This document shows, one piece after another, positions 23,249 through 54,517 of a DNA stretch of 64,000 nt. How positions within the stretch are numbered: position 1 is the first letter of the stretch; every line of letters begins with the position of its first letter. The position numbers and the translations under genes were made by a program. This stretch comes from Astropecten irregularis (Eukaryota; Echinodermata; Asteroidea; Paxillosida; Astropectinidae), in contig OZ020252.1 in the NCBI GenBank assembly GCA_963971285.1, positions 10,515,662 to 10,579,661 on the forward strand, read 5' to 3'. The notes beneath the pieces were generated by a model. It was not told where the DNA came from, did not search any database, and saw only the letters and a list, made by a program, of their open reading frames with translations.

Positions 23249-24338
23249 ATGTCGCCAACCGATATGTCACCAAAAGTCATGATGTCATCGCCAGCAACAA
23301 ACGATATCTCGGACCTGAAGTCGCAAGAGGGCGCTATAACGTACGGACTGTTAAACTCGACCATTGCAACAACACCAGTGAATTACAACACTGACAGGGA
23401 TGAAGATCTTGCCCTGGTAGAAATATTAATTTCACTTTTCATATTCATCAACGCTGTCTTTGGTAACATGCTTGTCATTGCGGTTTTGTGGCGTCGACGC
23501 AAGAGCCTTTCCAGAATGCATTTCTTCATTATTCATCTCTGTATTGCAGACTTGACGGTGGCGTTTCTATACACAATGCCGCAGATGATATGGGATATTA
23601 CCTACAAGTTCTACGCCCCTGACGTTGTTTGTAGGGTCGTCAAATATTTCCAATTATTCCCTGTCTATTTGTCCACGTACATACTCGTCATGACAGCAAT
23701 AGATAGGTACCTAGCTATATGCCATCCATTATTGAGTTTACGTGGTAATCACACACGACGTATGCGTTTCATGATCATTACGGCTTGGGTCATTGCAGCA
23801 GTGTGTAGCGCCCCCCAGTTCTGGTTCTTCAAGTTAACGAATCGTACGCCAGGTGCGCCCGAGGCCTTTATGGACTGCCGTGGTAACTTCCCTAAACATA
23901 TCCAGACAATTGTGCTCAGGGCATATATCACCTTCTTCACCATGGCCATATACGTCATACCTAGTTTAATCCTAGCGGCTATGTACGGCATGATATGTTT
24001 GACAGTGTGGAAGAACATGGACAAACAGTATAAGACATCGGAAAAGAAACACCAGCCCGTACAGCAAAAGGACAACAACAACTGGGAAGAAGACGAAACG
24101 GATAAGATGAATCCAGAAAATATTGAGATGCAGTCCACACAGCCAGCCAAGAAAGGGGCCCAGTCAGAGCAGACGCCCCAGATGTTATACCGGCGCCACG
24201 GTGCGGCAGGAAAGGTGTCACGAGCCAAGGTTAAGACTGTGAAAATGACACTGACCATTGTGACCGCGTACGTGGTGACATGGGCCCCGTTCTTTGTTGC
24301 TCAGATGCTGTCCGTATGGGCAAATATTTACTACGATA
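23249..24338 (+). CDS. Vasotocin-type receptor coding exon 1 (N-terminus to end of TM6)
   Basis: Encodes residues 1-363 plus one base of codon 364. The donor is GATA|GTAAGTAT. Without splicing the frame runs on to a stop at 24377-24379. Confidence 0.93.
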
Positions 24339-25958
24339 GTAAGTATTTCTGCCGACACAAATTGGCAATTGTACAATGATAATATTCATCTGATAATGAA
24401 GCATGTGCCCTATAATTATTTGCAAATTAAAAATGATGCTGAGGGATAAGAAAGCGGGAACTTTCTCAAATATTTAAGAAAGATTCTGCTTTTCAAATGC
24501 TTGACAAGGTCATGCTAGGATCGTTTATTTAGGATCTCGTAACCCTAAGCCTGCATTAGTATTTTTACCCGAGGGTCGATTCAACAAAACTCATCGTAAC
24601 TTACTATCGACTGTAGGACTTATGATACATTGCAGCCCTACGTTGGATATGATGGGTCATCCTTCGTAACTCGAGTTACGATCGATCGTATCGACTCTGA
24701 GGTCATTATTCAGCTTCATGAGCATTTGGCTATGGTGTGGAACTTGTAGCCATTAAAATTTGGCTCTTTCCAACAGTTTCTTGACGAATCGCCTTTATAG
24801 CCCAGCTCGTAAAATAATATATTCATCCATTAATATTGTATGACAAGTTTGCTTTTACTGAGGTGATACTCATGAGTACTTCCATTTTTTGTGGCCCCGG
24901 TGGGACATCCACGACTATAGCTACAATCGTGCCAATTAATGATTACAAACAACCGTTGCCATAAAAATGACACTAATTCCGAATATTGGCGCCAACATTT
25001 TCGATTCACGACTTGCTATGTCGTAAATTCATAGAACTGGTCCTTTTTGAATAACGAGTCTTCACCAATTTCCAAAGTCTATCGTAAACATTAATCTCAA
25101 AACAAATTGTGTGAAACCAATGGAGTCATTGGGGACGAAGTTGTTGCCAGTCGTCTTATGAAAACAGCATGGTGACTGGAGTTTTCATCAATGAAAACTT
25201 TTCATATTATACAGAATTCTGTACTTAAAGGTACTATCAAACTTTGGTAACATACCGAAACAGAAATCTTCACAGATTCACCTATAACTTACAGGGTATA
25301 AAGATGGTGATGGTAGCAACATACCGTTTAAATATTTCGGCCTGAAATGCTGCTGCTGTTTTTATCCAGAAAAGAGTTAAATCAATTAACCAAAAACCGA
25401 AAACGTTTTTCACTTATTTAAAAAAAAGTGGGCACCGTATGGGACTGTGAATTTCAAAGACGACTGTTACTGTACAGTCCTTGATATTTTTGCCCATGAA
25501 TCTTTTTTTCTGTGACAAAAACCGAAGTATGATATCACCTCTAAAGCAGTTCTTTGAAAGGGAGTGTGCTTTGAACAAGTCGTGAACATGAACGTCAATA
25601 ATATTGGCCTCTATTAAACATGAGTTGCTGTAAAAGTCAGTAACATTGGCGCCAATAATTTAGGTGATTCACATTTTCAAGACACATAAATATAGATCTT
25701 GATTATTAATGGTTCATTTCTGTTTCACCTGTAGACGTTTTCTTCACCATCACCATGCTGTTAACGAGCCTGACGAGTTGTGTCAATCCTTGGATCTACT
25801 TTGCCTTCTCTAGCAATGCAGGACGCGATATCAAGCAAGCACTCTGCTGCACCAAAGATGTACGGAGAGAAAATGGTCTGGCCTCGGACCGCACTCACCA
25901 CGATGACACCTCAACACGTTTTGTGTCTACTACTGCCACTGCAGGTGCCACCATGTAA
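23249..25958 (+). CDS. Vasopressin/oxytocin (vasotocin)-type neuropeptide GPCR, two coding exons, 437 aa
   Basis: A class A GPCR of the plasma membrane, expected to bind a vasotocin/oxytocin-type nonapeptide and signal through G proteins. CDS = join(23249..24338, 25735..25958). Seen: Asn36 glycosylation sequon in the N-terminus; GN in TM1 (72-73); LCIAD in TM2 (Asp101); Trp115-Asp116 and Cys128 before TM3; Asp-Arg-Tyr at 152-154; Trp180 in TM4; Cys210 in the second extracellular loop; Pro238 in TM5; a ~70-residue charged third intracellular loop; SRAKVKTVKMT leading into TM6 with TWAPFF; NPWIY in TM7 (381-385); Cys401-Cys402 as a likely palmitoylation site. FFIIH, IWD and the SRAK..TVKM block are hallmarks of vasopressin/oxytocin receptors. 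The single intron between TM6 and TM7 has phase 1 (GT donor at 24339, AG acceptor at 25733) and matches the intron position known from vertebrate vasopressin/oxytocin receptor genes. The first in-frame ATG is used as the start. Upstream noncoding exons cannot be excluded. Confidence 0.93.
24574..24694 (-). repeat. Family D MITE in receptor intron
   Basis: GGGTCGATTCAACAAAACTC at the left, then TTACTATCGACTGTAGGAC and CTCGAGTTACGATCGATCG. The distal end is lost. Confidence 0.75.
25228..25548 (-). repeat. Family A TTAA-type MITE in receptor intron
   Basis: TTAA-AGGTACTATCAAACTTTGG at the left and AAGTATGATATCACCTCTAA at the right, with the CACCGTATGGGACTG module inside. It lies about 190 bp upstream of the exon 2 acceptor. 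Confidence 0.8.
25735..25958 (+). CDS. Vasotocin-type receptor coding exon 2 (TM7 and cytoplasmic tail)
   Basis: The acceptor is TTTCACCTGTAG|ACGTTTTC. The joined codon 364 is AAC, followed by VFFTITMLLTSLTSCVNPW. The exon ends at TAA 25956-25958 after a Ser/Thr-rich tail. Confidence 0.93.
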
Positions 25959-26158
25959 CGGTGCTGGTTACAAGTTGAAAATATTGTACATTTTACACAT
26001 TATTTATTGATTTATTGATTTCTTTACAGACAGCCTCAATTCTGCCAAATCTGGGAGTTCTGAGGAAGTAAATTGTAATTTAAAAAAATTAAAAGATAAA
26101 TTGCAGTAAATTGTATTGTAAAAAGTGAATAGATAAAATTCAGCTACCAACTAAAAAT

Positions 26159-26164
26159 AATAAA
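26159..26164 (+). terminator. Candidate poly(A) signal AATAAA
   Basis: First exact AATAAA after the stop codon at 25958, about 200 bp downstream. Later AATAAA-like sequences also exist, so the true 3' end is uncertain. Confidence 0.3.
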
Positions 26165-26328
26165 ACACCGTTATGTCTTACTTTATTCTGACCTGAAAAT
26201 TATTTTTAAATTGTAAAGAAAATAGCACTGAAATACAACAATAATTAAATCACATCCAAAAAACTAGAGTTCAAGCAAAAGTGATTACACTCGATGATAA
26301 GATGAAACGAATAATTAAACTTCTTTAC

Positions 26329-26354
26329 AAAAAAAAAAAAAAAAAAAAAAAAAA
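26329..26354 (+). repeat. Poly(A) run of about 26 bp
   Basis: A simple A homopolymer. No retrotransposed sequence was recognised immediately 5' of it. Confidence 0.9.
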
Positions 26355-26514
26355 TCAAAACTTTTCAGGGAAAGTTAAAATCAGTACAGACAGATCATTG
26401 ATTGCCTGGAAACTAAATAAAGTGCAATTTAATTCCAGGACCCCAAATTTCAAATTAATTCGAATCAAGTAGAGAGGATAAAGCAATGAGATTTAAAATG
26501 CTTGTCGGGTAGAA

Positions 26515-27020
26515 AACGTGTTTAAATCAATCAAGTAATCAATCAATGAGTGGGAGCATGCGCGTTGCCGCATCTACCTTCGAGTGGTACTCCTTCGGTC
26601 TTCTGATGGCCATCCCCCAGGCAGCCATGCAACCCATCCCCATCCCATCCCAGCAAAATAACAATCCATCTGATGCAACCACGTGTCGTGTCGGATGACC
26701 TACCGGGCGAGTCCTACGAGTAGGTTCTCCCATAGAGAGAATTCACCTGGCAGGATCGCTCGCAGGGAATCTAGCCACATGACCGTACAGTCGCATCTGG
26801 CACTCATGTATCATGCAGGTCTCATCTGACTCTCCGCGAGTAACCTCTCATTAGACACACACGGCCCGACCAGCGATACCAAAGGATCCTCCTCAGAGAC
26901 CCAGTACCGAAAACATTGAGTTGTCTCCCCAAACACCCAGTCAAGGTCCATGTCTCACGACCGTAGAGTAAGACAGGCAAGACCAGGGACCCGAAGACCC
27001 GAATCTTTGTCCTCTTGCAT
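26515..27020 (-). mobile_element. Decayed 3' end of a non-LTR retrotransposon (reverse transcriptase C-terminal region)
   Basis: Read on the minus strand, shifted frames give a segment with VLPVLLYGRETWTL, then SLRRILWYRW, then WGMAIRRPKEYHSKVDAATR. These correspond to the conserved C-terminal part found after the reverse transcriptase domain in many metazoan non-LTR elements (the LLYGCETWTL and WGMARRRPLEYRRKVDAAT type blocks). Stops and frameshifts separate the blocks, so this is a dead 5'-truncated copy. The last open frame stops just before a short (TTGA)n tail at about 26520-26546, as expected for a non-LTR 3' end. Confidence 0.8.
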
Positions 27021-28212
27021 AGATATCGCGAACACCTTATACATAATTGTGATTAAAAGACCAAAGGAATTTGCTTGATTTGGGGTTCGTTATGATATGG
27101 TAACATCATTGGGGTCTAAGGGACAGAAAAGTACAAAAGTAAGGTACTGGGGCAGCATTTATTACTCTAGGACCGAGTTTGAGTGAGAACAGTGAGGTGT
27201 GACATTGCAGAACGTGATGGCAATTTGGTAGGCTCAAGTTGATCACACATTATGTTATGTCAAAACTTTCAGTGATCCAAAGCTTTGCCTGATTTTCCTA
27301 TCGACTTTTCTGCTTCTCAGAAAAAGTAGATTTCCATGTTTCAGCCACCTGATCAGAAACCATTTAGTTAAGTGGCAGAGAAGGAGGAAATGAGGAAAGT
27401 GGTTATTGAATATTCCGCAATTTGAGCAAGAAAAAGCAGATGTACACTTATCGTCCTCCAGCTTAAAAAGGTAAAAGAAAACCAGCTTTTCAGGTTACAG
27501 TATTTATTGAAAAGTAAATAATATGTTGATGCCAGAGAACTAGAAATGTGACATTTGCAAATTCTTCAACTTTCTGCTATTCTAATAGCAGTGAAACAGA
27601 TGTCCAGTTCCTGTTTATAATGTATACTCCAAAGTTATCCCAGCGAATTGGAACATGTCTTAGGAAATTTCCAAAGTAGGTTCTGGATTTGAGTTTTTAT
27701 AGTGTAAACAATGACAGCTTTGTTCTCTCGAGCGAGCACAATTTTTGAACAAGCAGCTATAATATCCACACAAGGCGTTAGAGCATATAAAGATTAACAT
27801 TTTGAATTCCGCACTAGGATAGCTCTATAGCAGATCGTTTGAACAATCCTATTTTGGATATGGGTTGATAACCAAGAACATCAGTGGATCAACAACTTTG
27901 TATCCACAACTATTTGTTGAAGCATTAGTGGTATACTGAGAGAGATTTGGAGGGAGTGATGAAGGACTTAAAAGCGAGAGGGAGAGAGGCTGGGGTAGAG
28001 ATGAATGATTGAGATATAATTCATTGCTTTAGAGGGGATATTGCGATAACCACCTTGGTTCAACCATGGTCGTTCATCGTGTTCCAAGCTAGAAGTTATA
28101 GTCTCATAACAATATGCTTCTTGCTGTGTGTTTTGACATGTCTTGAACTTCCATTGGCACACGCTTGGGCTATCATCAAAATGTGATATGCGATAAGAAA
28201 ATGCTTAGAGTT
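27021..28212. other. Intergenic, nothing recognised
   Basis: Unique sequence between the retroelement and a stem-loop. No exon recognised on either strand. Confidence 0.5.
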
Positions 28213-28425
28213 AAAAGGGCCTGACTCGTTTCGATCCTAGCAGGATCTTTATCGAAGGCTAAATGACAAGAAGACAAGATCAGGCAAGTCAAGATACATA
28301 TTGACCTGCAATGTTACTGTCTTCTTGTCATTCTTGACTTGCATGTTGTTCCCTTCTTGTCATTTAGCCTTCGATAAAGATCCTGCTAGAATCGAAACGC
28401 ATCAGGCCTTCCTAACTCCAAGCAT
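28213..28425. repeat. Family H stem-loop element (long form)
   Basis: The left arm CGATCCTAGCAGGATCTTTA followed by TCGAAGGCTAAATGACAAG is mirrored by CTTGTCATTTAGCCTTCGA and TAAAGATCCTGCTAGAATCG. A second pairing inside uses GACAAGAAGACA / TGTCTTCTTGTC. It ends with CTAACTCCAAGCATTTT, the family H tail. Confidence 0.8.
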
Positions 28426-29164
28426 TTTATAAATTTCAGGTTATAATTTTGGCCGATGAGCATTTTGAAGCTGTTTGTTACTTGAATAAATGAAAAGCTA
28501 AAAGAAAAGTCCGACAAAATTAGCTTTAGACATTTCTGGCGACAGTACAATGTACTGTTACAGCGCCACCAAGCGGCAACGTTAGATAAATGCTTCCCAT
28601 AGTGGCATCGATTGAGAATAAAAAGATGGATGCAAATTTGGAAAAGGATTTCAGTGATAATGATGAAATGATAATCATGAGGTCTGATAATGCGCCAACA
28701 CCATCCAATAGGGTGTTAAAGGCACACAATTTACACATATCTTTTACAAACATAAACAATTAAGACAAAATGGGAATAACTTTTACTTAAAGGATCGAAA
28801 TTGACCCCTACGTTTTCGTACTGGCACTATCTTAATCAAGTTTAATCGAAAGAAAAATCAATATCTATTATTGCGCACCGTAGAATACTCATGTAGAATT
28901 GCGATGTATTGTTCTACAAAGTTTTGTTTCATTGAAAGATTGTATTTTTGTATAACACTGGGTAAAAAGACGTAAATGGATAGAAATGTGAAGTCACTTG
29001 AGTATTGTAAATTGTCTTAAAGTGTAATAAGTAACAAGTTGCGACTTTTATGGTGGTAAACATGACTGTTGTTAACGTTTATCTGAAGTAATTAGTTTGT
29101 TCCGATGGTGCGTGACACAAACACCGTTCACAGTAAAAATACGAGGAACGTAGACCCGGGTAAA
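28426..29164. other. Intergenic, nothing recognised
   Basis: Unique sequence. Confidence 0.5.
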
Positions 29165-29968
29165 GATCCGGACCCAATTTCAGAGAGCTGCTTAAGCACC
29201 AAAATTTGCCTAAGTACCAAACACCTTGGTGAATAAAATCAGTATGCCAGCCAAAACTTGTGAATGTAATGCTCAGCAAGCAATGGCCGAATACAAGTCA
29301 GAAACAGTAAACATCACTTGAACATTTTGGTTGGCAATCCTGTTTGATCAAAGAAGACTTTTCGTGCTTAAAGGGACTCTGCAATGGGAATATTATGGCT
29401 TGAACATGTGCCACATGATAAAAAAAACTATACATGGGGATTGTGATTTTACCCACTTCCTCACACTGATTCGGAGTTAAAAACAGGTCTTTTGGTCTGT
29501 ATGCTAATTAGCGTTTCCATATTCATGAGCAAAACTGTGATGGCATCTGGGCAACTGAGAGCAGTAACTCAATTAAATTGGGCACAAAAAGGTTTTATAT
29601 GTTTCCTGACAGACCTTTTCCTCTTCAATTGGCTTTATTTTGCCAAATATGTTCCTTTCACTCAACTGGTGGTGTAATTTTTTTTACCAAACCATTTCTG
29701 TCGGTCAAGTTTGCCTCTTAATTTTTTGTGTTTTTCCATTATATTTCTGCTGTTGGTTCCCTACATGAGTATGCGTGAAAATCCCCCGTTTTACAAAGCC
29801 ATTCAAAGAAAAACCAAATGCTGGTTTGAAACCCAAATAAGACTTGCCATTCATTATTTGTCAGTATATTCTCTGTATGAAGGCAATAAAATAACCTGAC
29901 TGAAAAAAGCACTGCATGAACCCTTTAAGCAAATGTTGTGCTTAAGCAGCTCTATAAAACTGGACCCT
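29165..29968 (+). repeat. Family I element split by a family J insertion
   Basis: Left part GGACCCAATTTCAGAGAGC to TTTTCGTGCTTAA, right part TTAAGCAAATGTTGTGCTTAA to ATAAAACTGGACCC. Joined at TTAA, the parts match the intact copy at 50551-50812. Confidence 0.8.
29371..29926 (+). repeat. Family J TTAA-type element nested in family I
   Basis: Starts TTAA-AGGGACTCTGCAATGGG and ends CTGCATGAACCCT-TTAA. The interior matches the copy at 7056-7390. Small open frames inside have no recognisable product. Confidence 0.75.
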
Positions 29969-31370
29969 GTTCAGTTTCTGTATTAAAAAGGTAATTCATC
30001 TCCAACTGTAAATAATGGTAATTGTAAACATAATGTGCGTTTTATGAATATAATATGTATGTTAATTCAAGGCACGAAGTACTAAGTGATGTTAATGTCA
30101 CACAATTCCCTCTTCATGTACATACATGTATAGCTTGACGACGTAAAACAAATCACACACCTTTCAGGGATCTTGCTAAAGGCTCTTGGCTGGGCTAAAT
30201 CTGTAGCATAGAATCTGAAACATGGGATAAAAAAGGTGTTAAAATAACTGACCATTACAGAAAGATACTGAGATTACAATGAATTTGTGCTAATTAAATA
30301 CAGTTTTTATTGTGTTCGTCTTGTGATGTTCCATATCTATGCTATAACACTATACTGTATACGCAGACACAATAGAATTGAACTTTAAAGTGTTACTTGT
30401 ATAATTACATCAATTATCGTTGTATTAATATAGTATTATCATTGTATTTACACATACATACCAATATATAATTCTTACAAAACCACAAGCCAACCATAGA
30501 TACATAACCGTTTTTGTGTTCATATGATGTTTTGCTAGTATGTTTATACAATGTCCATGTATGCTATAATTATGTATAGTGTGAGAAAATAGCAATTCAA
30601 AAAGGCCGTTTTCGCAGTTGTAACTTTCAACTTTATAACGAACACATGTGTAGTTCAGACCTCCATAAGTGTGTACATTATATATAAGCAGATGTTCCTA
30701 ACGTATGATAATTTACAGAAACACCTGCCGCTAAACACTTCGCAACATCAAAATGCTCTTAGTCTTTGTAGTATGCCCTCAGCATTTCTGGTGCTATTCT
30801 TGAAAGTTTTAGATTTCTATCAACAATTGATACATTCAAACGGCTATGTCGTGATACACCATTTGCCTCTTATGTGAGTTCAACCTCCTGAATGTTAAAT
30901 AACTCATGAATGCCTAGGAAATATTGAAAGTGGGGACGAGATTTCGATCTAAAGATCTGTTTCAGACGGCTGTCAACTTTCCATCAAAATGAGGAATTAT
31001 ACTCCATTTCGTTTGGGATATTTAAGCTAAACAGACAATCTACGGTTGATTGAATCAAATCCCAGGCAAAATATACTCAAAAACGATTCTGTTCTCTAAA
31101 ACATTCAACGGAATGCAATTACCCTGGCTCTTTGGTCACATGATATGTGTCTGCCTTAATAGATAACACAGGTGTTCTTCAACTCATATCAGTTTTCTCC
31201 TTTTGGGTATTCTGCTTTCCCAAATCCAATACTGGAGGATCATTTGTGGTAAATTGTATTGAATGTTACCATTTCAGGAGGTACATGGATGAACATAGTA
31301 ACACCATAATGCAGCCTAGAGCTTCAATATGGTGTGAGGTTCCGAAGGAATAATTGCGAGAAATGGATGA
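29969..31370. other. Intergenic, nothing recognised
   Basis: AT-rich unique sequence without recognised exons or repeats. Confidence 0.5.
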
Positions 31371-31442
31371 CTTAAAGGAACATTACGGTTTTTCTCGGTC
31401 AAGTAAACCTATAAGGATGCTTTGACCGAGTTTTTCCGTTCA

Positions 31443-31720
31443 TGGGGCCTTTGCGAAACCACGGCTTGGGCTTGGGCTTGGGCTTGGGCTTGGGCTTGGG
31501 CTTGGGCTTGGGCTAAGGCTAAGGCTCTGTCATCTAAAACCTGAAAATACATGTTGTGGTTTTTCCTCGAGATTGAAACTCCGTTTTCTTGCTCGAAATA
31601 AAGTCTACCTAGCTCGAAACCGTGCCCCAAAACCTTATTTTGATACTTGTTACTTTAACATGGATCTAAGAAATGGAGTCGGAGCCGGAGCCGGAGCAGG
31701 AGCCCAAGCCGAGGCCCATA
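31443..31720. repeat. Family E element with (GGGCTT)n array
   Basis: Begins GGGGCCTTTGCGAAACCACG, runs into about nine GGGCTT hexamers (31463-31515), then a ~150 bp interior (CTGTCATCTAAAACCTG, TTTTGATACTTGTTAC), and closes with the complementary GGAGCC/GAGCCC array and GAGGCCCATAG. Confidence 0.8.
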
Positions 31721-32107
31721 GAATCTTTTTGAGTGAACAACATTGTCTTTTAAAAACATATTCATAGACTTTATAAACAACATTGGCAGAAGTTTACTTT
31801 CAAATGACGGCAAAAACCTCGTGGCCGTCTGTTTCCTACATGCCCTGCCGCCATTTTGTTTTAGAAAGCTAAAAACAAATGAGGCGGGTCTAGTACACTC
31901 TATTGAGTACAGATAATTGTCCCAACCATCTTTCATGAGTACAATCGGTAAAATAGTGCCACATTTCTGTTTTGTGGTCAAACTTGGGTGACGACTCCAT
32001 AATGTTTTTTCAGGTATTTTTATGGCATCCATCATAAGTAAATTTTGGACTTTCTTTAACTTTTGCCGAATTCCGCCAGTACAACAATGGCGGCCAACAT
32101 TTCCCAT
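31655..32107 (-). CDS. Uncertain 150-codon open frame behind promoter-like motifs
   Basis: Starts at ATG 32107-32105 (MGNVGRHCCTGGIRQKLKKV) and runs 150 codons, its last part overlapping family E. I recognise no domain. The basic, Cys-containing start could be that of a small mitochondrial-type protein, but that is a guess. The region has an unusual density of promoter-type motifs: TCACGTGA at 32126-32133, TTTCCTG, GGCCGCCATTG across codons 5-8 and AATGGCGGC near 31855. Could be a first exon, a processed pseudogene or chance. Confidence 0.2.
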   Translation of the reverse strand: MGNVGRHCCTGGIRQKLKKVQNLLMMDAIKIPEKTLWSRHPSLTTKQKCGTILPIVLMKDGWDNYLYSIECTRPASFVFSFLKQNGGRACRKQTATRFLPSFESKLLPMLFIKSMNMFLKDNVVHSKRFYGPRLGLLLRLRLRLHFLDPC

Positions 32108-32125
32108 GACAGGAAATGAGCCGAG

Positions 32126-32133
32126 TCACGTGA
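32126..32133. promoter_or_regulatory. E-box palindrome TCACGTGA
   Basis: Exact USF/TFE-type palindrome about 20 bp upstream of the ATG of the minus-strand open frame at 32107, next to an ETS-type TTTCCTG and a YY1-type GCCGCCATT. Confidence 0.3.
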
Positions 32134-32398
32134 TTCAGTAAGAGCTACCATTTCTCTCGCCAAGAAATTTCTATTCATTAAATTAATGAGATTAAAGAAG
32201 ATGTGCAAAACATAAACCAATGTCACAAACACAGAAAGAGACTTCCAAGGACTTTAAAGGATTCTTGGGTTAATCGTAAAAAATAGATTTATGTGTACAT
32301 TTCGTCCCCATGTTAGAAATGACAGAATCACGCCCGTGTTCAAATTACGTCACTGAGCGGTAAACAAACCACAGGCGAGGAGAAAGAATAATTTCATT

Positions 32399-32758
32399 TA
32401 AAGGGATGGTACAGAATTGGTAAGACAAAATTCACTTCAAGATCACAGATTCACATAAACCTTACACCGTATAATGGTGATGATAGGAGAAAATCTCCCA
32501 TGAAATGTTTTTGTCTGAAATGCCATATTCGTTGAGAAATAAATGGAACTATTTTCCGATTGGAATAAATCGCTTCGAAGCGTTTTATTCATTCGTTGAA
32601 ATGTGTAAACGGGTTTTCACTATTTTCTCGTGACCCAGATGGCTGATTGACCTCAAACTTCTACAGGTTTGTCAGTCAGTTAAGGTATCATTTATGATGG
32701 ATTACATAATGTGCTTTCACTGTCAGCAACGGTTTTGTCGCAAAAACCATCCCTTTAA
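32399..32758 (+). repeat. Family B TTAA-type MITE, complete
   Basis: TTAA-AGGGATGGTACAGAATTGG at the left and AAAACCATCCCT-TTAA at the right. The interior includes CGCTTCGAAGCGTTTTATTC (a short palindrome) and ATTACATAATGTGC. Confidence 0.9.
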
Positions 32759-33611: not shown

Positions 33612-33830
33612 CTTGGGGTGTTTACGAAACGGAGGCTTAGGCTCCATCCTAGGCTTCGGCTCCATTTAGTGAATCCATTTTGAAATAACAGTTATAAAAT
33701 AGAGACTTTTGGCTGTGGTTCGGAAGTAGATTCTCTGATTTGAAAAGGAAAACTGAGCTTCAGCTTCAATGAAAAACCACAACCTATATTTTCAGCATAG
33801 GATGTCAGAGCTGGAGCCTGAGCCTGAGCT

Positions 33831-33865
<35 letters not shown>

Positions 33866-33898: not shown

Positions 33899-33910
33899 TA
33901 AATCTTTACA

Positions 33911-36300: not shown

Positions 36301-36301
36301 T

Positions 36302-47500: not shown

Positions 47501-50500
47501 AGTCAATTATCATTGTTTGTTTGGCAGTCAGAAGCAAAGAAACCACTCACATACTGCTACATCCCAAGGATCATTGAAGATACCAGCAGCACATTTTAAC
47601 ATCTTTTTACAAACTAACAATACTTCCCATCAAAAGTAGGAACAGATTATTATTTTATATCATTTTGTATTATCTCTGTATATAAGAATAAAGATGGACA
47701 TGAAGAATATTGCAATATCAAGTCTTGATCAAGTCTTGATCAAGTCTTCACATGATCATTTGAAGGCTTAATGGTAACTAAAAATGTTGGTTTTGGTCAA
47801 AGAAATGCAGACTTATGGGTACAAATATCAAAAAAGATATAGTAACAGTCATCATTCTGTGCAATTTCTAGTCCCATTATGGTGCCCACCCATTTTTTAT
47901 AAAAAAAAAAAACAGTGCAAAACGTGCACGGTATTTTCAAATCTATTCACGGGTGAGATGAAAACTGTTTTTTGGTCATTGTTTTTTTCTCATTTCTAGA
48001 TAAATACAGCATTTCAGGCAGAAATGTTTTAACGGTTTTTTAGCACTGTGACCATCTTTATACCCTGTAAGTTATGGGTATACATTTGTGAAGATTTCTG
48101 TTTTAGTGTGCTACTATACGTTTAAAAGTTAATAGTGTATTGCCATTTTATGGCCTATCTGCCGTCAACATTCAATTCAAATTTTAAATTGCTAATTTTA
48201 TTATTAGTTAACATGTTCATTCGATACATTACCCGGAATAAAAACACGCTAAAGGAAATTATAGCAGTCAAATGTAAATAAACATTTCACATAGAAAAAG
48301 TCTGTCTTACATTAATGCGAACGAAGTGCGAAGTACTTTTATTGAATGTTATTTACGTTCGTGAAATCAGAAATCTTGTTTTGTGAGTGATTTGTGATTT
48401 TAGCTCCACAAAAATAACTTTCCTATAATAACATGGGGATGCTCGAAGTTGTTTTCCTGCCTGAATACGAACAATTCATCTTCAAACAGGCATACGGATG
48501 TTGTCTCAAAAGACACCAGTTCTGTGAAGCAATTAAGCGTGTTAGATGAGTTCGTGCACATCTTTCATTATGGGAAATGTGAGCTACATAATTTCATATT
48601 CTTGGAAACGAAAGGTAAAGTAGAAACATACAGTGAGATATGATATGTAGTGGATGCTAGTGGCGAGTTAATAAGGGTATCGACTTTACTGTATGTTGCT
48701 CTCAAAATAATTTCTCATTGTTATAAACCATTGGGGGTCTGAACTTGGATAAAATCCCAATACACTGACGGCTAAGTCTAAGCTTTTACACGACTCCATC
48801 CAAGCTAATGTAATTGAAGGTGCTATCATACTTTGGTAGCATACCGAAACAGAAATCTTCACATATTTACCAGCCCTATAACTTAAAGGGTATAAAGATG
48901 GTGATGGTAGAAACATACCATTGAAATTGTTCTGACTGACATGAAATGCTGTATTTGTCCAGAAAAGAGTGAAAACAATGACCAAAAACTATTTTTTTCT
49001 TAGGAAGATAAATAAAATTCATGTGAAAAGATTTAAAAACTACCGTGGGCGTTTCAACTGTTTTCTCAAAAAGTGAGCACCGTGGGACTGAAATTTTCAC
49101 AGATGACTGTGACTGTATCTTCCCTGATATTTTTGCCCATGAATCTGTATTTCTTTGACAAAAACCAAAGTATGATACTACCTTTAATTTGTGTGCACAC
49201 TGTGTCTTAATTCATACGTAATGAACATCAATCACATTACCAAACCTTGTCATCATTTTGAAATATTTATTAACGTCTGGTATTTCAATATATTATTCAT
49301 TCTTAGAATGTTATTGATGTCCCTTGAAAAGACTAATTTGAATGAAATGAAATGTTATTCTTTCATGGAATGGCAAGCTTGAAGCCTACTTTGTTTAGAC
49401 AAAATGAGAGACTGAATTTATCCCTATTTTACAGTTTCATTTTTGTCCCTTTTTCCTAAGTTAGATCGGCTATGGTTAATATGAATAATTTTGGTAGAAA
49501 GCTTAATCACTTGTCGCCCGAATTAATAGAAATGTTGAGTGTGAAGTTCTTCACGTGATGGGGACTGGGGTCCATTTCACCAAAATCACCGTAACTAGCT
49601 ATCGATCGTAGGACTTATGATGCATTGCAGCCCTAGGTATAGGATATGCCCCCTAAGATGGGTTATCCTTCGTAACTCGAGCTACGATCGATCGTAGGGC
49701 TCCGTGAAGTAAATTTTAAGAAGCTCGGCAATCGATCGTAACTAGATTTACGAAGATAGGACATCGTAGCGGGTATAACCCACGTAGGGCTGCAATGCAT
49801 CGATAAGTCCTATACGATTGATAGTAAGTTACGAAGAGTTTGGTGAAATCGAACCCAGGTCACGCCTGCCATAGATAACTAACAAAACTACACAATAAAG
49901 CGGCTGATATTGTCGGTATAATTCACATAAAATGTGCACTTAGAATGGGGTGAATATACTTTGTTTTTTTCGTCAGAGAAATGCAAATTCATGGTCAATC
50001 TCGAGAAAGATGCAGTAACAGTCATCTGTGAAATTTCCAGTCCCATACGGTGCCCACTTTTTGAAAATACAGTGACAACGCCCACGGTAATTTAAAAATC
50101 TTTTCATAGGATTTTTAATCTTCCGAAGATCAAAATTGTTTTGGCTCAATTGGTTTGACTCTTTTCTGGATAAATGCAGCAATTCAGGCAGAAACATTAT
50201 AACGGTATGTTTCTACCATCACCATCTTTACACCCTGTAATAATTTATAGGTAAATCTGTGAAGATTTCTGTTTCGGTATGCTACCAAAGTATGATACTA
50301 ACTTTAAAGGAGTGTGCATTTTATTAATTTGAACAGTCTAAACGTTCCTACCTGTAGATAGCGTATTATCTTGCAGAGAGGCGTTCCAGCATGGAACTCA
50401 CCCATGTACTTATATATGATCTCAAATCCGCTGTTGATAATGCCTACCAACAAATCTGTAATATGATAAATATACAAACAAATCTTGATTTAGAGGAATA

Positions 50501-53500
50501 ACCAAGACAACGGCTGAATGGATTTAAAGGGCTAGCACATGATTAGCACAGGGGCCAATTTCATAGAACTGCTTAAGCACCAACATTTGATTAAGCACCA
50601 AAAACCATGGTAAATGAAATCAGTATGCCAGCCAAAACTCCTTGTGAATGTTATGCTCAGCAATCAACGGCCGAATACAAGTCCAAAGCAGTAAACATCA
50701 TATGAACATTTGGTTGGTAATCATGTTTGATCAATGAAGACTATTCGTGCTTTAATAAGCAAATGTTGTGCCTAAAAAGCAGCTCTATGAAATTGGCCTC
50801 AGATCACAAAACAGCATTTCAAACTTTGTCTTATCATGGCTATAAACGAAATAACACTTTAACGGGTTGTTTCAGTAATATATCATTTTACTTGAGTTAG
50901 GAGGGCCTGACGTTTCGATCCTAGATTCTGCTAGGATCGAAACGTCAGGCCCTCCTAACTGAATGAATATTTCATGTCATTATTTAGCATATTTTCAGTT
51001 GATGAGAAGTTTAAGTTTTCAGCACTTTATTGCTAAGTCTTGTATTAACAAAATTAATCATTGTTATATCTTTACTATGAAAATTGAATTTTTCTTCCTC
51101 ACAGGTAAACCCTTTTGCTTTATTGCTTTATAAGATATTTATTATCAAGATAATAAATCGCATTTTGAAGCTACTCAAACGGAAAGTACCTTCTAAACAC
51201 TTACAAACCAAGTGAGTTGTACCTGAATCGATGAATACTAAGTCTGATGATCTACAAGTCATGTATTATCATCTCGAAGGCGACAGTGCACTTTTCAGTT
51301 CAACATCTGGATGTAGCAGGTCGGACTACCTGAAGTACAAACCTGGGACCAATTTGATAGAGCTGCTAAGCACAAAAATTTGCTTACTACAAAAATGTCT
51401 TGCCCAATAAAACAAACCACCATTGGAAAATCCATTTGATATTCATGGTCAGCGAACAACAGCCAAAGAACAATCACAAGTGATACACAACACGTGGAAA
51501 TTTGGTTGTTAACCCTGTTTTTATCAAGACAGAAATGTCATGCTTAGCAAATTTTCGTGCTGAGCAGCCTTAATGAAATTGGCCCCTGAATACTTGTTGG
51601 TTGTACCTGTAAGAGTTTATTACCTGAGGCGGCCAGGTGCGCAACGAAGAAATTGAGTCTTGACTTCTTGTGTCTGATGATATAGACTGCCAGTAGCACC
51701 ATGGAGTTACCAATCACGTTCAGTGCAAGAAGCACCCACAAGACAATCAGCTGGAACTCCTATCATAGGAAGCAATGTATTAACAATAGGTGAATACACC
51801 ATTATGCAGGTGGTCATTATACGGTCACCTCACCCATTAGTCTAACCTATTGGTAGTTCCATTCACCAATACAGTCCAACAATGAGTATATGATTGAAAT
51901 GTCTTTGTTTCTTATACTGCTCCCAGCAGCCCCACACCTTTTTAATTAAGCCAACGGCCTGAGCTAAGCAGCTCTTTGAAATATCTCCACAATTTGACAG
52001 TCACACATCACGGATGCGCAATTCTGCTAGGGGGAAATTCATTTTTTGAAAGCACAGTTCCAGCATTTTACGTACTTTCCTCGACTTCTGGAAAATTTGA
52101 CACTAAGTATCACACTGTAGTTGGTGTCTTCCGATAAATTCGCATTTTAGAGTGTTTAAAGGTAATTTCATACTTTTTGTCAAAGAAATGCAGATTCATG
52201 GCCAACGATATCAATAAAGATACAGTAACAGTCATCTGTGAAATGTCCAGTCCCATACGGTGTCCAAGTATTTAGAAAACAGTGAAATACGCCCACGGTA
52301 TTTCTAAAAATCTTTTCAAAGGATTTTTGAAGATTTTTGAAGATCAAAATTGTTTTTTTGTTCATTGGTTTTACTCTATTCTTGATAATACAGCATTTCA
52401 GGCAGAAAATGTTAAATGTTTCTACCATCACTATTTCTATATCCTGTAAGTTACTGGTAAATATGTGCAGATTTCTGTATGCTACCAAAGTATGATAGTA
52501 CCTTTGTCGAGACAAAAAGTGGGTTTAGGTTTTGTCAAAAGATGACATGATAAAATTCCACAATATCTCCTTAAAATAATTGACTTTCTTTTAGTATAAT
52601 TTTTTTTTTTTAGGAATTTAAGTTTACCAAATAACTGTTTCCGGAGACCAAGAATAGAAAACCCACACATGCAAAAGTCGTCGATGATTAAACACCCACA
52701 AGCAACAGTCGTCAATATTTTGTTGTTAGCTCTGGATGTTATCAAATATTGATGCTGATCAAGAATGCCTGTCTCTGCGGAGCAAGACTTCTATTGTCCA
52801 TCTAATCTGTTTGTACGTGGGACTTGCCGTCTCAAGTTTCACTCATATCTTGGGACATCAATATCATTTTGTGAAGGCCTTTACTATCTGCATGATCAGG
52901 TTTGGAAGGAAAAGTCATAATCTTCGTTCTGAAGTTTGATTCTTGGTGAGAGAATGGTTTCATGTACTGGACGAAGTGTTTTTGTGCTATTAGGATCTTA
53001 TCATGGAAATAACTTGATGTGTTTTCACGGTAATGTGGCAGTTTGCTTGAAGCAAGATGATTTCCGGAGTTCAGGCCTCTTGCTTTATTAAGCCGCATGA
53101 GCTAAACATGAATCTACGGCAAACAAGTCACTCCTTTAAGTTTGTTTCAACAGTGGGATAACAAAAATGAAAAGTTGTGTGACTAGGATTCAAAGCTGGT
53201 TTGAGGATGACAACCGACCCGAAATAATTATGTTTTAGCAAGGATCACGGCTCGGATCAGCACATTTTGGTGAGTCGATGACTTGACGTTTCGAGCGGTG
53301 TGATTTGTCCGTCTTTGAATGGATGCGTTCGTTTAGCTTCCACGAGTCGACAAAGTCAATCTTGTCTCCTCTCTCTCTCTCGCTTGTTTTATGCAGTATA
53401 CTGCTGATCCACAGGTCAAGGCTGCTCCGTGGAAGCTAAACAAACTCACAAACTCATGCATTAGGCAGCTATCCCTTTTCATGAAGACGGACAGAGCGCA

Positions 53501-54517
53501 CTGTCCGAAACGTCAGGTCATCTACTCACCAGCAGTAACTTCCTCTCATAACCAGTCTTCTCTCCAAAGGCAGATTTCTATGTCACGTGGTTTTTACCCT
53601 CAAACCAGTTATATCAAAGTTGAGTAAGTTTAACACTGCGTCCCTTTTGAACAGTACCTTTCTGTTTCTAACCATCAAATGCATACCAATTTTAATCAGC
53701 CGTATATACGGTACAGCAGGCCAGAAAAGCAGTAGCGATGAAATTGACTTAACGCGTTTTTCTAATAAGTACATGTATCTGGTTTCTATCCGGATAAATA
53801 TTTACCGGCTAATAGCGGAGAAAAGTGGCAAACGGTCATTTTCTATTGCAATCAGCTTTCCGGATAATACTACATCGATCGGCACAACTTAAACTAATTT
53901 GCATGTTTGCCGGATAAAGCTGACCTAGGTCATGCATCAGGTCAAACGCTATACGTGAAAAGGCATACTGGTGCTTCCGTTTCTCTCCCGTATACACAGT
54001 CAGTTGGAACGATGTCGTTTTCTATTGCCGGTCTCCGGAAAGTTTCTTCGGCATTATCCTTCCCAAACTAGGATAAATACCCGCTAAAGTGTTCACTGAA
54101 TTATCCGGATAATGGAGGCGAACGTCATTTTTTATTGGCGAAAATTAATCTGTTTTCCGGTATATGCCGAAAAACGGATCGTATAGAAAAACGCCCATAT
54201 ACTTTAAGTCCTTTAAGTTTATAGGGGAGGCAATGGGCACTCAGTTTACTGAACAAAATGTCTCTGCTTTCTACTCCTGCAATTTCCAAGCGAAATCAAA
54301 ACAAACCATTTGCGAAGCCAAATGAACATTCTTTTCTTGAGCTTAAACAACTTACCTTATAAAATAGGAGTCTATTCTCGATTTCGGTCATGTCATCGGT
54401 TGTGTTTGGTGCGCCCTCTGTAGTCGACTCCATCCTATCTGCATTTGGCACTAATGAAACACCGCTTGCGTTGGGGAAGTTCAATAACTGTCCATAAACT
54501 GTCTGAGTCGTTGCCAT
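38306..54517 (-). CDS. NPS / CCAP / NG-peptide-type neuropeptide GPCR, nine coding exons, 434 aa
   Basis: A class A GPCR related to vertebrate neuropeptide S receptor, arthropod CCAP receptor and ambulacrarian NG-peptide receptor. CDS = complement(join(38306..38531, 41046..41238, 42926..43018, 44311..44458, 46231..46379, 47261..47354, 50352..50455, 51624..51759, 54356..54517)); total 1305 nt, in frame throughout. Seen: N-glycosylation sequons at Asn16 and Asn38; GN in TM1 (71-72); AASDLLVG in TM2 (Asp100); EFHAGTPLCK with Cys127; TM3 ending SLDRFFAI (Asp-Arg-Phe, not Asp-Arg-Tyr); PMDFSGS; TM4 Trp177; Cys202 in loop 2; Pro229 in TM5; GLIPKAKRKTLKMT before TM6; CWCPF (300-304); IQNLPYLSSAVNPFIY in TM7; Cys374-Cys375 as likely palmitoylation site. 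The HAG, MxFSGS, IPKAK..TxKMT and IQNLPxLxSAxNPxIY blocks place it in this family. All introns are GT-AG except intron 5 (GC-AG). The start is the only ATG giving a normal extracellular N-terminus. Which of the NPSR, CCAPR or NG-receptor lineages it joins needs a tree. Confidence 0.92.
38618..39109. repeat. Family K, TA-flanked mariner-like MITE in intron 8
   Basis: TA-CAGGGCGAGTCCAAAAGAAC at the left and GTTCTTTTTGACTCACCTTG-TA at the right. The interior is also largely palindromic (AGCACTCTCTCCTGCTTATT and its inverse), so it could fold into a long hairpin. The TA flanks and CAGGG termini fit Tc1/mariner-type non-autonomous elements. Confidence 0.8.
39531..40014. repeat. Inverted-repeat element in intron 8 (family Q)
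   Basis: AAAAAAAGTTCTGCAACTCA then AGTTTGA at the left is mirrored by TCAAACTTGAGTTGCAGAAC and TTTTTTT at the right. A second inner pair (GAAATGTTGCAAAA / TTTTGCAACATTTC) lies inside. One copy in the window. Confidence 0.8.
41046..41238 (-). CDS. NPSR/CCAPR-type receptor exon 8 (TM6, ECL3, TM7)
   Basis: Acceptor TTGTTTCAG|CTTTTATTC, donor CTCAG|GTAAGG, phase 2. 193 nt with CWCPF and NPFIY. If the intron is retained the frame ends at once (CTC AGG TAA), giving a receptor ending ..CQELR. Confidence 0.9.
41363..41651. repeat. Family L element in intron 8/exon 8 flank
   Basis: CAGGCGCGGTTCTAGAGCC at the left and GTAGAACTGCGCCTG at the right, with G-rich runs inside as in the copy at 6546-6882. 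It sits about 125 bp upstream of the exon 8 acceptor, in intron 7. Confidence 0.8.
41860..42286. repeat. Family P TTAA-type MITE in intron 7
   Basis: TTAA-AGGTTCACTGTAATAAAA at the left and its perfect inverse TTTTATTACAGTGAACCT-TTAA at the right; 427 bp. The interior is unrelated to families A-C. A CRE palindrome (TGACGTCA) lies at 42055-42062. Confidence 0.88.
42650..42873. repeat. Family E-related inverted-repeat element in intron 7
   Basis: CATAGGGCCTTTACGAAACT then AGGCTTGAGGCTAGGCTT at the left; the right end is the inverse. The arms are about 40 bp. It ends about 53 bp from exon 7. Confidence 0.8.
42926..43018 (-). CDS. NPSR/CCAPR-type receptor exon 7 (ICL3, start of TM6)
   Basis: Acceptor TTTTAATTACAG|GCTCT, donor TCGTTG|GTATGT. 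93 nt, encodes SKEMKHRASSRGLIPKAKRK then TLKMTVCIIV. Confidence 0.9.
44158..44302. repeat. Family G hairpin next to exon 6 donor (intron 6)
   Basis: GGGAGACTTTTGAAGGGTCG, GTCTTGAGTCAACAGCGCAC, GCGC... on the left is mirrored on the right, ending CTCCAAAAGTCTCCC. The stem contains alternating purine-pyrimidine GTGCGTGCGCGTGCGC. The right arm ends about 8 bp from the splice donor at 44310-44309. Confidence 0.85.
44311..44458 (-). CDS. NPSR/CCAPR-type receptor exon 6 (TM5, start of ICL3)
   Basis: Acceptor TTTCCACAG|GTTTAC, donor AAAACTG|GTAAGTT. 148 nt, encodes VYTLYVVSGFFYIPLIVISA to VKGSKT. A family B MITE terminus lies 38 bp upstream and a hairpin begins about 8 bp downstream. Confidence 0.9.
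44497..44852 (+). repeat. Family B TTAA-type MITE in intron 5
   Basis: TTAA-AGGGATGGTACAGAATTGG at the left and CTGTACCATCCCTTA at the right. Its left edge is 38 bp from the exon 6 acceptor, so the branch point of intron 5 probably lies in or beside the element. Confidence 0.88.
44851..45208 (+). repeat. Family C MITE in intron 5, abutting family B
   Basis: Starts ACAATACTGAATTGGTAAC and ends TTCCAATCATGAATATAAC, with GATCTCGGGGTAAGATC and CAGATGTCCGATTGAGCTC inside. Confidence 0.75.
45215..45312. repeat. Family H stem-loop in intron 5, degenerate
   Basis: GAGTAAGGAGGACCTGACG and GATCCTGCTAGGATAGAAAC, CAGACCCTCATTAATTCCAAG: the usual order with mismatches. Confidence 0.65.
45543..45692. repeat. 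Family G hairpin in intron 5
   Basis: GAATGGGAGACTTTGGAGAA, CCGGTCTTCAAGTCAACAGC, GCACGCGCACGCAC on the left and the inverse on the right ending AAGTCCCCCATTC. The stem is rich in alternating CG/CA (Z-DNA prone). Same family as 44158-44302. Confidence 0.85.
45729..45992. repeat. Family I-like element in intron 5
   Basis: CAGGGACCAATTTCACGGAC at the left and CATGAAATTGGCTCCCGG at the right; interior blocks match 51348-51590 in reverse orientation. Confidence 0.75.
46004..46217. repeat. Family E element in intron 5 abutting the GC donor
   Basis: AAAGGCCTTTTCCAAACCTC, CTGTCATCCATATACTGAAA, TTTTGATACACATTATTTG and GGAGCC/GAGCCT hexamers up to about 46217. The closing terminus is missing. The GC donor of exon 5 lies at 46230-46229. 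Confidence 0.75.
46231..46379 (-). CDS. NPSR/CCAPR-type receptor exon 5 (TM4, ECL2); GC donor
   Basis: Acceptor TTTTATAAG|GCAAGAGAG, donor TACAAG|GCAAGT. 149 nt, residues 167-215 plus the two bases completing Gly166. Includes the loop cysteine Cys202 and SWQYK. Phase 0 at the GC donor joins correctly to VYTLY of exon 6; the nearest GT (four bases further on) would break the frame. Confidence 0.88.
46587..47017. repeat. TA-flanked MITE with CAGGGTGTCC termini, intron 4
   Basis: TA-CAGGGTGTCCCAGAAAAAAC then GCAACACTT at the left and the inverse GTTGCGTTTTTTTGGACACC..CTG-TA at the right. The interior is mostly palindromic, with a repeated CACCATGTAGAATTT/AAATTCTACATGGTG pair. Typical of mariner-type hairpin MITEs. 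Confidence 0.88.
47261..47354 (-). CDS. NPSR/CCAPR-type receptor exon 4 (TM3, ICL2)
   Basis: Acceptor TTTCTTGCAG|GCCTAC, donor GAAGTG|GTGAGG. 94 nt. Contains the Asp-Arg-Phe at the end of TM3 and PMDFSGS. Confidence 0.9.
47407..47482 (-). pseudogene. tRNA-like sequence in intron 3
   Basis: On the minus strand it reads GGCTGGA-TA-TCTCAGTTGGCA.. and ends TTCGAATCCCGC-TCCAGTC. The seven acceptor pairs form (one G-T), and a D arm with AGTTGG and a T loop TTCGAAT are present. The anticodon arm does not close to a seven-base loop (AGCGG..CCGCT encloses ten) and the T stem has a mismatch. More likely a tRNA pseudogene or tRNA-derived SINE head than a working tRNA. Confidence 0.55.
47770..48126 (+). 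repeat. Family A MITE in intron 3, diverged
   Basis: AAAGAAATGCAGACTTATGG, TATGGTGCCCACCC and CATTTCAGGCAGAAATG modules, but both termini are degraded. Confidence 0.7.
48816..49188 (-). repeat. Family A TTAA-type MITE in intron 3
   Basis: AAGGTGCTATCATACTTTGG at the left and ACCAAAGTATGATACTACCT-TTAA at the right with all modules. Confidence 0.85.
49189..49563. other. Intron 3, unique part
   Basis: AT-rich; nothing recognised. Confidence 0.5.
49568..49858. repeat. Two family D MITEs head to head in intron 3
   Basis: The first copy (49568-about 49712) runs GGGTCCATTTCACCAAAATC to CGATCGTAGGGCTCCGTGAAG; the second (about 49720-49858) runs CAATCGATCGTAACTAG to GGTGAAATCGAACCC in inverted order. 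About 10 bp lie between them. Confidence 0.8.
49940..50308 (+). repeat. Family A MITE in intron 3, 43 bp from exon 3
   Basis: GGGTGAATATACTTTG at the degraded left end, GTCCCATACGGTGCCCAC inside, ACCAAAGTATGATACTAACT-TTAA at the right. The right end is about 43 bp downstream, in gene orientation, of the exon 3 donor. Confidence 0.8.
50352..50455 (-). CDS. NPSR/CCAPR-type receptor exon 3 (TM2, ECL1, start of TM3)
   Basis: Acceptor CATATTACAG|ATTTG, donor CTACAG|GTAGGA. 104 nt, completes Asp100 and encodes LLVGIINSGF through CKIIRYLQ with the TM3 cysteine. Confidence 0.9.
50551..50812. repeat. Family I element, intact, intron 2
   Basis: GGGGCCAATTTCATAGAACT then GCTTAAGCACC at the left; AGCAGCTCTATGAAATTGGCC at the right (inverted ends). 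262 bp. It serves as reference for the interrupted copies at 17043 and 29165. Confidence 0.85.
50889..50963. repeat. Family H stem-loop, perfect, intron 2
   Basis: AGTTAGGAGGGCCTGACGTT then TCGATCCTAG is mirrored exactly by CTAGGATCGAAACGTCAGGC then CCTCCTAACT, with a loop of only a few bases. Confidence 0.9.
51348..51592. repeat. Family I-like element, intron 2, close to exon 2
   Basis: GGGACCAATTTGATAGAGCT at the left and TTAATGAAATTGGCCCCTG at the right. It ends about 32 bp from the exon 2 donor (51623-51622). Confidence 0.75.
51624..51759 (-). CDS. NPSR/CCAPR-type receptor exon 2 (TM1, start of TM2)
   Basis: Acceptor ATGATAG|GAGTTCC, donor CCTCAG|GTAATA. 136 nt, encodes EFQLIVLWVLLALNVIGNSM through HLAAS, ending in phase 1. 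Confidence 0.9.
51760..52156. other. Intron 1, unique part
   Basis: Nothing recognised apart from the acceptor of exon 2. Confidence 0.5.
52157..52507 (+). repeat. Family A TTAA-type MITE in intron 1
   Basis: TTAA-AGGTAATTTCATACTTTTT at the left, ACCAAAGTATGATAGTACCTTT at the right. Confidence 0.85.
52508..53261. other. Intron 1, unique part
   Basis: No repeat family or exon recognised. Confidence 0.5.
53262..53545. repeat. Inverted-repeat element with GACGTTTCG arms, intron 1
   Basis: GGTGAGTCGATGACTTGACG then TTTCGAGCG at the left is mirrored by CGAAACGTCAGGTCATCTAC then TCACC at the right. Inner pairs include TTTAGCTTCCACG / CGTGGAAGCTAAA. A (CT)n run lies at about 53370-53383. Confidence 0.75.
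53750..54196. repeat. Possible element with GCGTTTTTCTA ends, intron 1
   Basis: ACGCGTTTTTCTAATAAG at the left and GTATAGAAAAACGCCC at the right are approximate inverse repeats. The interior repeats CCGGATAA and TTTTCTATTG/TTTTTTATTGGC blocks on both sides. Confidence 0.5.
54356..54517 (-). CDS. NPSR/CCAPR-type receptor exon 1 (extracellular N-terminus)
   Basis: Encodes residues 1-54, hydrophilic with two sequons and no signal peptide. The donor is ATAAG|GTAAGT, phase 0. Confidence 0.85.

What the first reader, a model, noticed from the sequence alone, without database searches (positions are those of the whole stretch)
23249..54517. Vasotocin-type and NPSR/CCAPR-type receptor genes are direct neighbours, tail to tail
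Seen: a vasopressin/oxytocin-type receptor (+) ends at 25958 and an NPSR/CCAPR-type receptor (-) ends at 38306, with no convincing gene between. Known: these two receptor families are sisters in bilaterian GPCR phylogenies, and ambulacrarian NG-peptide precursors share a neurophysin domain with vasotocin-type precursors. Inference: the linkage may be a surviving trace of the duplication that made both signalling systems. The gene structures have diverged greatly (2 versus 9 coding exons, no shared intron position).
Basis: partly seen in the sequence, partly recalled or inferred. Interest (0 to 1): 0.75.

Follow-up and report, generated by a model that had tools for sequence, protein, structure and literature searches.

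The report
Neighbouring sister hormone-receptor genes in starfish
In this starfish genome the genes for two related brain-hormone receptors, one for an oxytocin-like hormone and one for its long-separated sister hormone, still lie next to each other; the same neighbourhood was reported for a sea urchin in 2015, and their sharing a chromosome in acorn worms and molluscs suggests a trace of a gene duplication from the dawn of bilateral animals.

Summary
Confirmed. The window lies in what is, by protein similarity, a starfish genome (476 Mb; C16). A VP/OT-type receptor (23249-25958 +, 2 exons, 437 aa) and an NPS/NG-peptide/CCAP-type receptor (54517-38306 -, 9 exons, 434 aa after one splice correction) are convergent neighbours 12.3 kb apart, with no domain-bearing ORF found between. 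Only one of each was found in the genome. A tree puts each firmly in its family. The arrangement and its reading as a relic of an ancient tandem duplication are already in print for the sea urchin S. purpuratus (Semmens 2015, PMC4422128), which reports no adjacency elsewhere. New here: (1) it holds in a second echinoderm class; (2) by matching contig lengths of database proteins, both receptor types share a contig in 10 of 12 comparable species: 3 echinoderms, 2 hemichordates, 5 of 7 molluscs (not in a chiton or a scallop on short scaffolds); (3) the two ligand genes (CLVQDCPNG and NGFFYG type, the only two neurophysin genes found) are also linked, 234 kb apart on another chromosome. The linkage is therefore probably older than the protostome-deuterostome split. 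Not shown: positions within contigs, amphioxus, annelids, arthropods; sisterhood of the families rests on literature; tail-to-tail orientation needs an inversion.

The parts
23249..24338 (+). VP/OT-type (asterotocin-type) receptor gene, coding exon 1 (N-terminus to extracellular loop 3)
   Evidence: best PDB matches V1a receptor 1.1e-71 and oxytocin receptor 3.5e-67; Pfam 7tm_1 1.4e-52; tree
25735..25958 (+). VP/OT-type receptor gene, coding exon 2 (TM7 and C-tail, stop codon included)
   Evidence: GT-AG, phase 1
25959..38305 (.). Intergenic gap between the two 3' ends, 12,347 bp, 20.5% in within-window repeats
   Evidence: 12 of 12 ORFs of 90 aa or more without a Pfam match above cut-off
54356..54517 (-). 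NPS/NG-peptide/CCAP-type receptor gene, coding exon 1
51624..51759 (-). NPS/CCAP-type receptor, exon 2 (acceptor corrected from 51750 to 51759)
50352..50455 (-). NPS/CCAP-type receptor, exon 3
47261..47354 (-). NPS/CCAP-type receptor, exon 4
46231..46379 (-). NPS/CCAP-type receptor, exon 5, followed by a GC-AG intron (AAG|GCAAGT)
44311..44458 (-). NPS/CCAP-type receptor, exon 6
42926..43018 (-). NPS/CCAP-type receptor, exon 7
41046..41238 (-). NPS/CCAP-type receptor, exon 8
38306..38531 (-). NPS/CCAP-type receptor, exon 9 with stop codon
   Evidence: the whole protein (431-aa model) is 75% identical over its full length to the Asterias rubens NPS/CCAP-type receptor

Best explanation
The pair is the inherited product of a local duplication of one receptor gene before protostomes and deuterostomes split. 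One copy became the VP/OT-type receptor, the other the NPS/NG-peptide/CCAP-type receptor. Both copies stayed on one ancestral chromosome and, at least in two echinoderm classes, stayed immediate neighbours. In this starfish the first should bind the CLVQDCPNGamide-type hormone and the second NGFFYamide, both encoded on another chromosome (C18), where the two ligand genes are also still linked. Shown: gene models, family placement, one copy of each found, adjacency, ligand-gene linkage, contig sharing elsewhere. Inferred: ligand pairing (from work on other echinoderms), the duplication event, and an inversion after or during it, because the genes face each other.
For: Family placement with 100/99 support for each clade and best PDB matches among OT/VP receptors for both. 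Adjacent in S. purpuratus (PMC4422128 section 4.4). With about 20-24 ancestral linkage groups (passages of PMC12005716, and PMC11175523), chance sharing is about 1 in 20 per independent clade (my estimate). Ligand genes: the only two neurophysin genes found lie on one chromosome, their peptides 234 kb apart, and both appear to have a phase-0 intron just before the first neurophysin cysteine. One exception, the chiton Liolophura, belongs to a class with strong rearrangement.
Against: The receptors share no intron position (2 versus 9 coding exons) and only 23% identity (85 of 368 aligned positions). Convergent orientation is not what a plain tandem duplication leaves. Liolophura has the two on different contigs (25.1 and 96.4 Mb) and Ylistrum on different scaffolds. 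The lists are capped, so further paralogues of a species on other contigs may be unseen. Semmens reports non-adjacency in other bilaterians including B. floridae. My tree leaves VP/OT, NPS/CCAP and GnRH receptors as an unresolved three-way fork. Mollusc co-location alone is one inherited fact at about 1 in 20, weaker if duplicate receptors are counted as extra chances.
Confidence: 0.78

Rival explanations
1. The two receptors were brought together by a later rearrangement in the echinoderm (or ambulacrarian) stem and have been neighbours since then; the duplication was not local, and co-location in molluscs is coincidence.
For: Strict adjacency is known only in echinoderms; S. purpuratus is the only species in which Semmens 2015 reports it. 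No shared introns and convergent orientation. Mollusc sharing at contig level could be a 1-in-20 coincidence inherited by the whole phylum.
Against: Hemichordates and molluscs both show contig sharing. Both mollusc CCAP-receptor clades and both mollusc VTR clades of the tree are found on a shared contig in one species or another (tree).
Confidence: 0.14
2. The neighbourhood is kept by selection, for example through shared enhancers that co-regulate the two receptors, rather than being a passive relic.
For: Neighbours in two echinoderm classes (and this window); the genes face each other across 12.3 kb, and large introns could hold regulatory DNA.
Against: No regulatory evidence was obtained. 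A fifth of the gap is within-window repeats. Semmens 2015 reports the genes as not adjacent in other bilaterians.
Confidence: 0.05
3. Chance neighbourhood in this lineage only, or an assembly artefact.
For: None found.
Against: Same neighbourhood in a sea urchin, contig sharing in 10 of 12 other species, a window near the middle of a 21.5-Mb contig and without N, and about 1 in 8,000 by chance for a given gene pair (my arithmetic).
Confidence: 0.03

Closest known systems
NGFFFamide receptor / VP/OT-type receptor gene pair of Strongylocentrotus purpuratus, scaffold 114 (Semmens et al. 2015, PMC4422128; section 4.4 read whole; other passages by term search)
   Same: The same two receptor families as adjacent genes, with the same interpretation (tandem duplication about 600 million years ago).
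   Different: This is an asteroid. Orientation in the urchin could not be compared, because figure S3 is in a supplement that was not available to me. (The paper's Discussion once says precursor where section 4.4 says receptor.)
NPS/CCAP-type receptor of Asterias rubens (P0001) and the NGFFYamide system (PMC6156427, start of abstract and one passage seen)
   Same: Orthologue at 75% identity over the full length; this genome encodes the NGFFYG repeat.
   Different: Another starfish species. Its linkage to the VP/OT receptor was not comparable in my lists, because the VTR hit came from A. amurensis.
Asterotocin (VP/OT-type) receptor of starfish (PMC6668147, start of abstract and passages seen)
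   Same: Receptor orthologue at 68-71% identity to Acanthaster, Patiria and A. amurensis proteins.
   Different: The ligand encoded here reads CLVQDCPNG; the A. rubens ligand CLVQDCPEG is recalled.
VP/OT and SFRNGVamide precursor genes in tandem in Branchiostoma floridae (reported in PMC4422128, passage)
   Same: Linked VP/OT-type and NG-peptide ligand genes.
   Different: Here they are 234 kb apart and divergent, on a different chromosome from the receptors.

Membership tests
VP/OT-type receptor family (gene at 23249-25958) | Rhodopsin-class 7TM domain | tested here: met
   Pfam PF00001, 1.4e-52, profile 1-260 of 260
VP/OT-type receptor family (gene at 23249-25958) | Falls within the VP/OT receptor clade, apart from NPS/CCAP receptors | tested here: met
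   100/99 for the VTR clade, 100/99 with other starfish VTRs
VP/OT-type receptor family (gene at 23249-25958) | Single intron between TM6 and TM7 as in human V1AR | tested here: met
   Intron after residue 363, before TM7, 24-31 residues from the position of the nearest NPSR intron; PMC3316597 section 13 puts the V1AR intron about 25 residues from NPSR intron VII. No alignment to the human gene was made
VP/OT-type receptor family (gene at 23249-25958) | Activated by a VP/OT-type peptide | not testable with these tools
   A candidate ligand gene (CLVQDCPNGGKR plus neurophysin) is present on C18
NPS/NG-peptide/CCAP-type receptor family (gene at 38306-54517) | Rhodopsin-class 7TM domain | tested here: met
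   Pfam PF00001, 3.7e-49, profile 1-260 of 260
NPS/NG-peptide/CCAP-type receptor family (gene at 38306-54517) | Falls within the NPS/NG/CCAP receptor clade | tested here: met
   100/99 for the clade, 100/100 with other starfish
NPS/NG-peptide/CCAP-type receptor family (gene at 38306-54517) | About 9 coding exons with introns I-VIII as in vertebrate NPSR | tested here: inconclusive
   The number fits: nine coding exons, eight introns against the description in PMC3316597 section 13; positions were not aligned to human NPSR
NPS/NG-peptide/CCAP-type receptor family (gene at 38306-54517) | Activated by an NG peptide | not testable with these tools
   An NGFFYGKRNGFFYGKR precursor with neurophysin is present
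Relic of a bilaterian local duplication | The two receptor families are each other's closest relatives | tested here: inconclusive
   Three-way fork with GnRHR unresolved; the NPSR-type protein's best PDB hits are OT and V1a receptors (1e-39), then GnRHR (1.4e-29), which ranks just ahead of V2R (7.7e-29); literature supports sisterhood
Relic of a bilaterian local duplication | Linkage in distant bilaterian phyla | tested here: met
   Shared contig in 5 of 5 comparable ambulacrarians and 5 of 7 molluscs; contig level only
Relic of a bilaterian local duplication | Linkage in amphioxus, annelids, arthropods | not tested

The most novel reading that the evidence does not exclude
[quoted passage not shown] in the same starfish genome the two ligand genes are also still linked on a second chromosome, so both halves of one doubled hormone system keep the mark of local duplication side by side.
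Probability: 0.7. Interest if true: 0.65.

Novelty: new member of a known kind. Interest (0 to 1): 0.5.

Why it matters
It makes the origin of two major hormone systems testable by position as well as by sequence. If both receptors sit in one bilaterian linkage group, they arose by local duplication, not whole-genome duplication, before the protostome-deuterostome split; linked ligand genes say the same for the peptides. Semmens 2015 could point to receptors in an urchin and ligands in amphioxus; here both linkages are seen in one genome, and the contig-level link reaches molluscs.

Tried and rejected
A gene in the gap or flanks: 28 non-receptor ORFs were scanned against Pfam: all 12 gap ORFs of 90 aa or more, all 12 flank ORFs of 100 aa or more, one flank ORF of 95 aa, and three inside introns of the NPS/CCAP receptor gene. 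None reached a curated cut-off. Three gap ORFs had weak matches (PARP 0.00073 at an EP repeat, Imm31 0.0028, Med3 0.0082) and one flank ORF another (ZHX finger, 0.091); all are below cut-off and read as chance. ORFs in 30 kb on either side of the window were only listed and looked at by eye.

Sisterhood by tree: two trees did not resolve it; outgroups were human GnRHR in both, a coral protein and starfish receptors of the own genome; long branches were flagged.

Rows: the trees used a selection, 55 and 48 of the 275 database proteins returned. Dropped between them: the Montipora protein and six others (B. belcheri VTR, M. californianus CCAPR, deer V1b, Bradybaena, Folsomia, second Ptychodera VTR); added: six receptors of the own genome (L012 was left out).

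Vertebrate trace: PMC3826523 (passages only) does not mention NPSR; PMC3912137 (one passage) gave nothing; not pursued. A G-alpha search of the own genome, to look for the vertebrate OT/VP-receptor paralogon on C16, did not complete and was dropped.

Literature: seven searches, the passages opened and the two sections read showed no report of the receptor linkage outside S. purpuratus; subscription journals and preprints are not in the library, and supplements were not available.

Full report
What is there. Two G-protein-coupled receptor genes face each other tail to tail. The left one (+, 23249-25958) has two coding exons and encodes 437 aa. The right one (-, 54517-38306) has nine coding exons; I moved the exon-2 acceptor from 51750 to 51759 because this restores a conserved stretch, giving 434 aa. 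Searches used the earlier 431-aa model. Seven of its eight introns are GT-AG and one is GC-AG. The 12,347 bp between them hold 12 open frames of 90 aa or more, all scanned, none with a Pfam match above a curated cut-off.

Which organism. The closest proteins are from starfish: the NPS/CCAP-type receptor is 75% identical to Asterias rubens over its full length, and 79% and 76% to the shorter Patiria and Acanthaster proteins over 82-83% of the query; the VTR is 68-71% identical to Acanthaster, Patiria and A. amurensis. The assembly is 475.7 Mb in 168 contigs, and the window lies at C16:10515662-10579661 of a 21.46-Mb contig. One receptor of each type was found; the next best matches in the genome are 35% identical or less for the VTR and 32% or less for the NPS/CCAP type.

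Which families. Against the PDB the left protein matches V1a (1.1e-71) and oxytocin receptors best; the right one also matches OT and V1a receptors best (1.3e-39, 3.8e-39), then GnRHR (1.4e-29) just ahead of V2R (7.7e-29). In a 57-protein tree the NPS/NG/CCAP clade and the VP/OT clade each have 100/99 support, and the window proteins sit in their starfish subclades (100/100 and 100/99). The fork joining these clades with GnRHR is unresolved, so sisterhood is taken from the literature.

What was known. Semmens et al. 2015 (PMC4422128, section 4.4 read) report that the NGFFFamide receptor gene is adjacent to a VP/OT-type receptor gene in S. purpuratus, that the two are not adjacent in other bilaterians with genome data (unpublished data), and that this presumably preserves a tandem duplication about 600 million years old. 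PMC3316597 (section 13 read) describes nine coding exons for NPSR and a conserved VP-receptor intron about 25 residues from NPSR intron VII; the window shows a similar distance (24 VTR or 31 NPSR residues).

New test of linkage. The protein searches give the length of the longest contig that carries each hit. Named species with a contig in both the NPS/CCAP lists (all 49 hits, best 120 of 297) and the VTR list (best 120 of 172) number 12. In 10 the two lengths are identical: Patiria miniata, Acanthaster planci, Diadema antillarum (a 2.06-Mb scaffold), Glandiceps talaboti, Ptychodera flava, Mercenaria mercenaria, Patella vulgata, Solemya velum, Pecten maximus, Mytilus trossulus. In 2 they differ: Liolophura sinensis (25.1 and 96.4 Mb) and Ylistrum balloti (scaffolds of 0.8-2.9 Mb). 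I take identical length as the same contig. Liolophura is a chiton; PMC12005716 (passages; it studied L. japonica and other chitons, and L. sinensis is not among the species named in those passages) describes chiton chromosomes as strongly rearranged while 20 molluscan linkage groups are fairly conserved in bivalves. The method does tell contigs apart: Haliotis cracherodii, Ylistrum and Lingula have two VTRs on contigs of different length. Chance sharing is about 1 in 20 per clade by my estimate from 20 molluscan groups, 24 bilaterian groups and 23 hemichordate chromosomes (passages).

Ligand genes. A genome-wide search for neurophysin found two genes, both on C18. One encodes ACLVQDCPNGGKR after a signal-like stretch (exon at about C18:6159932, neurophysin exon at 6175726, +); the other encodes NGFFYGKRNGFFYGKR (about C18:5926007, neurophysin exon at 5923556, -). 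The peptides lie 233,925 bp apart, in divergent orientation. In both, the likeliest splice sites put a phase-0 intron directly before the first cysteine of neurophysin (read from the sequence, no transcript). So both ligands and both receptors of the doubled system remain linked in one genome, on two chromosomes. Semmens cites the tandem ligand genes of B. floridae (passage).

How it probably came about. A local duplication of one receptor gene before the protostome-deuterostome split, an inversion at or after it, intron gain or loss in one copy, and slow drift apart along the chromosome, except in echinoderms. The signalling roles (VP/OT-type peptide at the left receptor, NGFFYamide at the right) are inferred from orthologues.

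Verdict. The extension to starfish, hemichordates and molluscs and the linked ligand genes are the added value, with the limits stated above.

Noticed in passing
own genome C18:5923556-6175941 (L002, L004, L014, L001): The only two neurophysin genes found (NGFFYamide-type and CLVQDCPNG-type precursors) have their peptides 234 kb apart on one chromosome and appear to share a phase-0 intron before the neurophysin domain.
   Followed up: yes
window 46230 downward on - strand (intron after exon 5 of the NPS/CCAP receptor): Non-canonical GC-AG intron (AAG|GCAAGT ... TTTCCACAG).
   Followed up: partly
window 1216-1553, 12888-13259, 17763-18123, 20927-21283, 25228-25540, 48817-49185, 49956-50304, 52158-52504: Dispersed repeat of about 350 bp in many copies (about 69-86% identity), one copy in the VTR intron and several in NPSR introns; 27% of the window is in within-window repeats.
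   Followed up: no
window 31463-31514 and 33814-33882; L022:505-777; L025:5213-5569: Hexamer tracts (GGCTTG / GAGCCT) giving open frames of EPEPEP or GLGLGL type; EP-type frames recur in both flanks.
   Followed up: no
own genome C21:5904823, C21:11167112, C21:11271974 (L007-L009): Three receptors with a single open frame on one chromosome form a clade of their own (100/99), outside the GnRHR, VP/OT and NPS/CCAP receptors (81/86) in the tree; their ligand family was not identified.
   Followed up: partly
lophotrochozoan VTR hits: Of seven species with two VP/OT-type receptors on known contigs, four have both on one contig (Solemya, Owenia, Argopecten, Gigantopelta) and three do not (Haliotis cracherodii, Ylistrum, Lingula); for Solemya and Owenia the tree puts the two in different VTR clades, suggesting an older local duplication of the VTR too.
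   Followed up: partly
window 22.2-23.0 kb and 33.7-34.6 kb: A similar repeat unit with overlapping open frames, on both strands at the second place; the frames scanned there had no Pfam match above cut-off.
   Followed up: no
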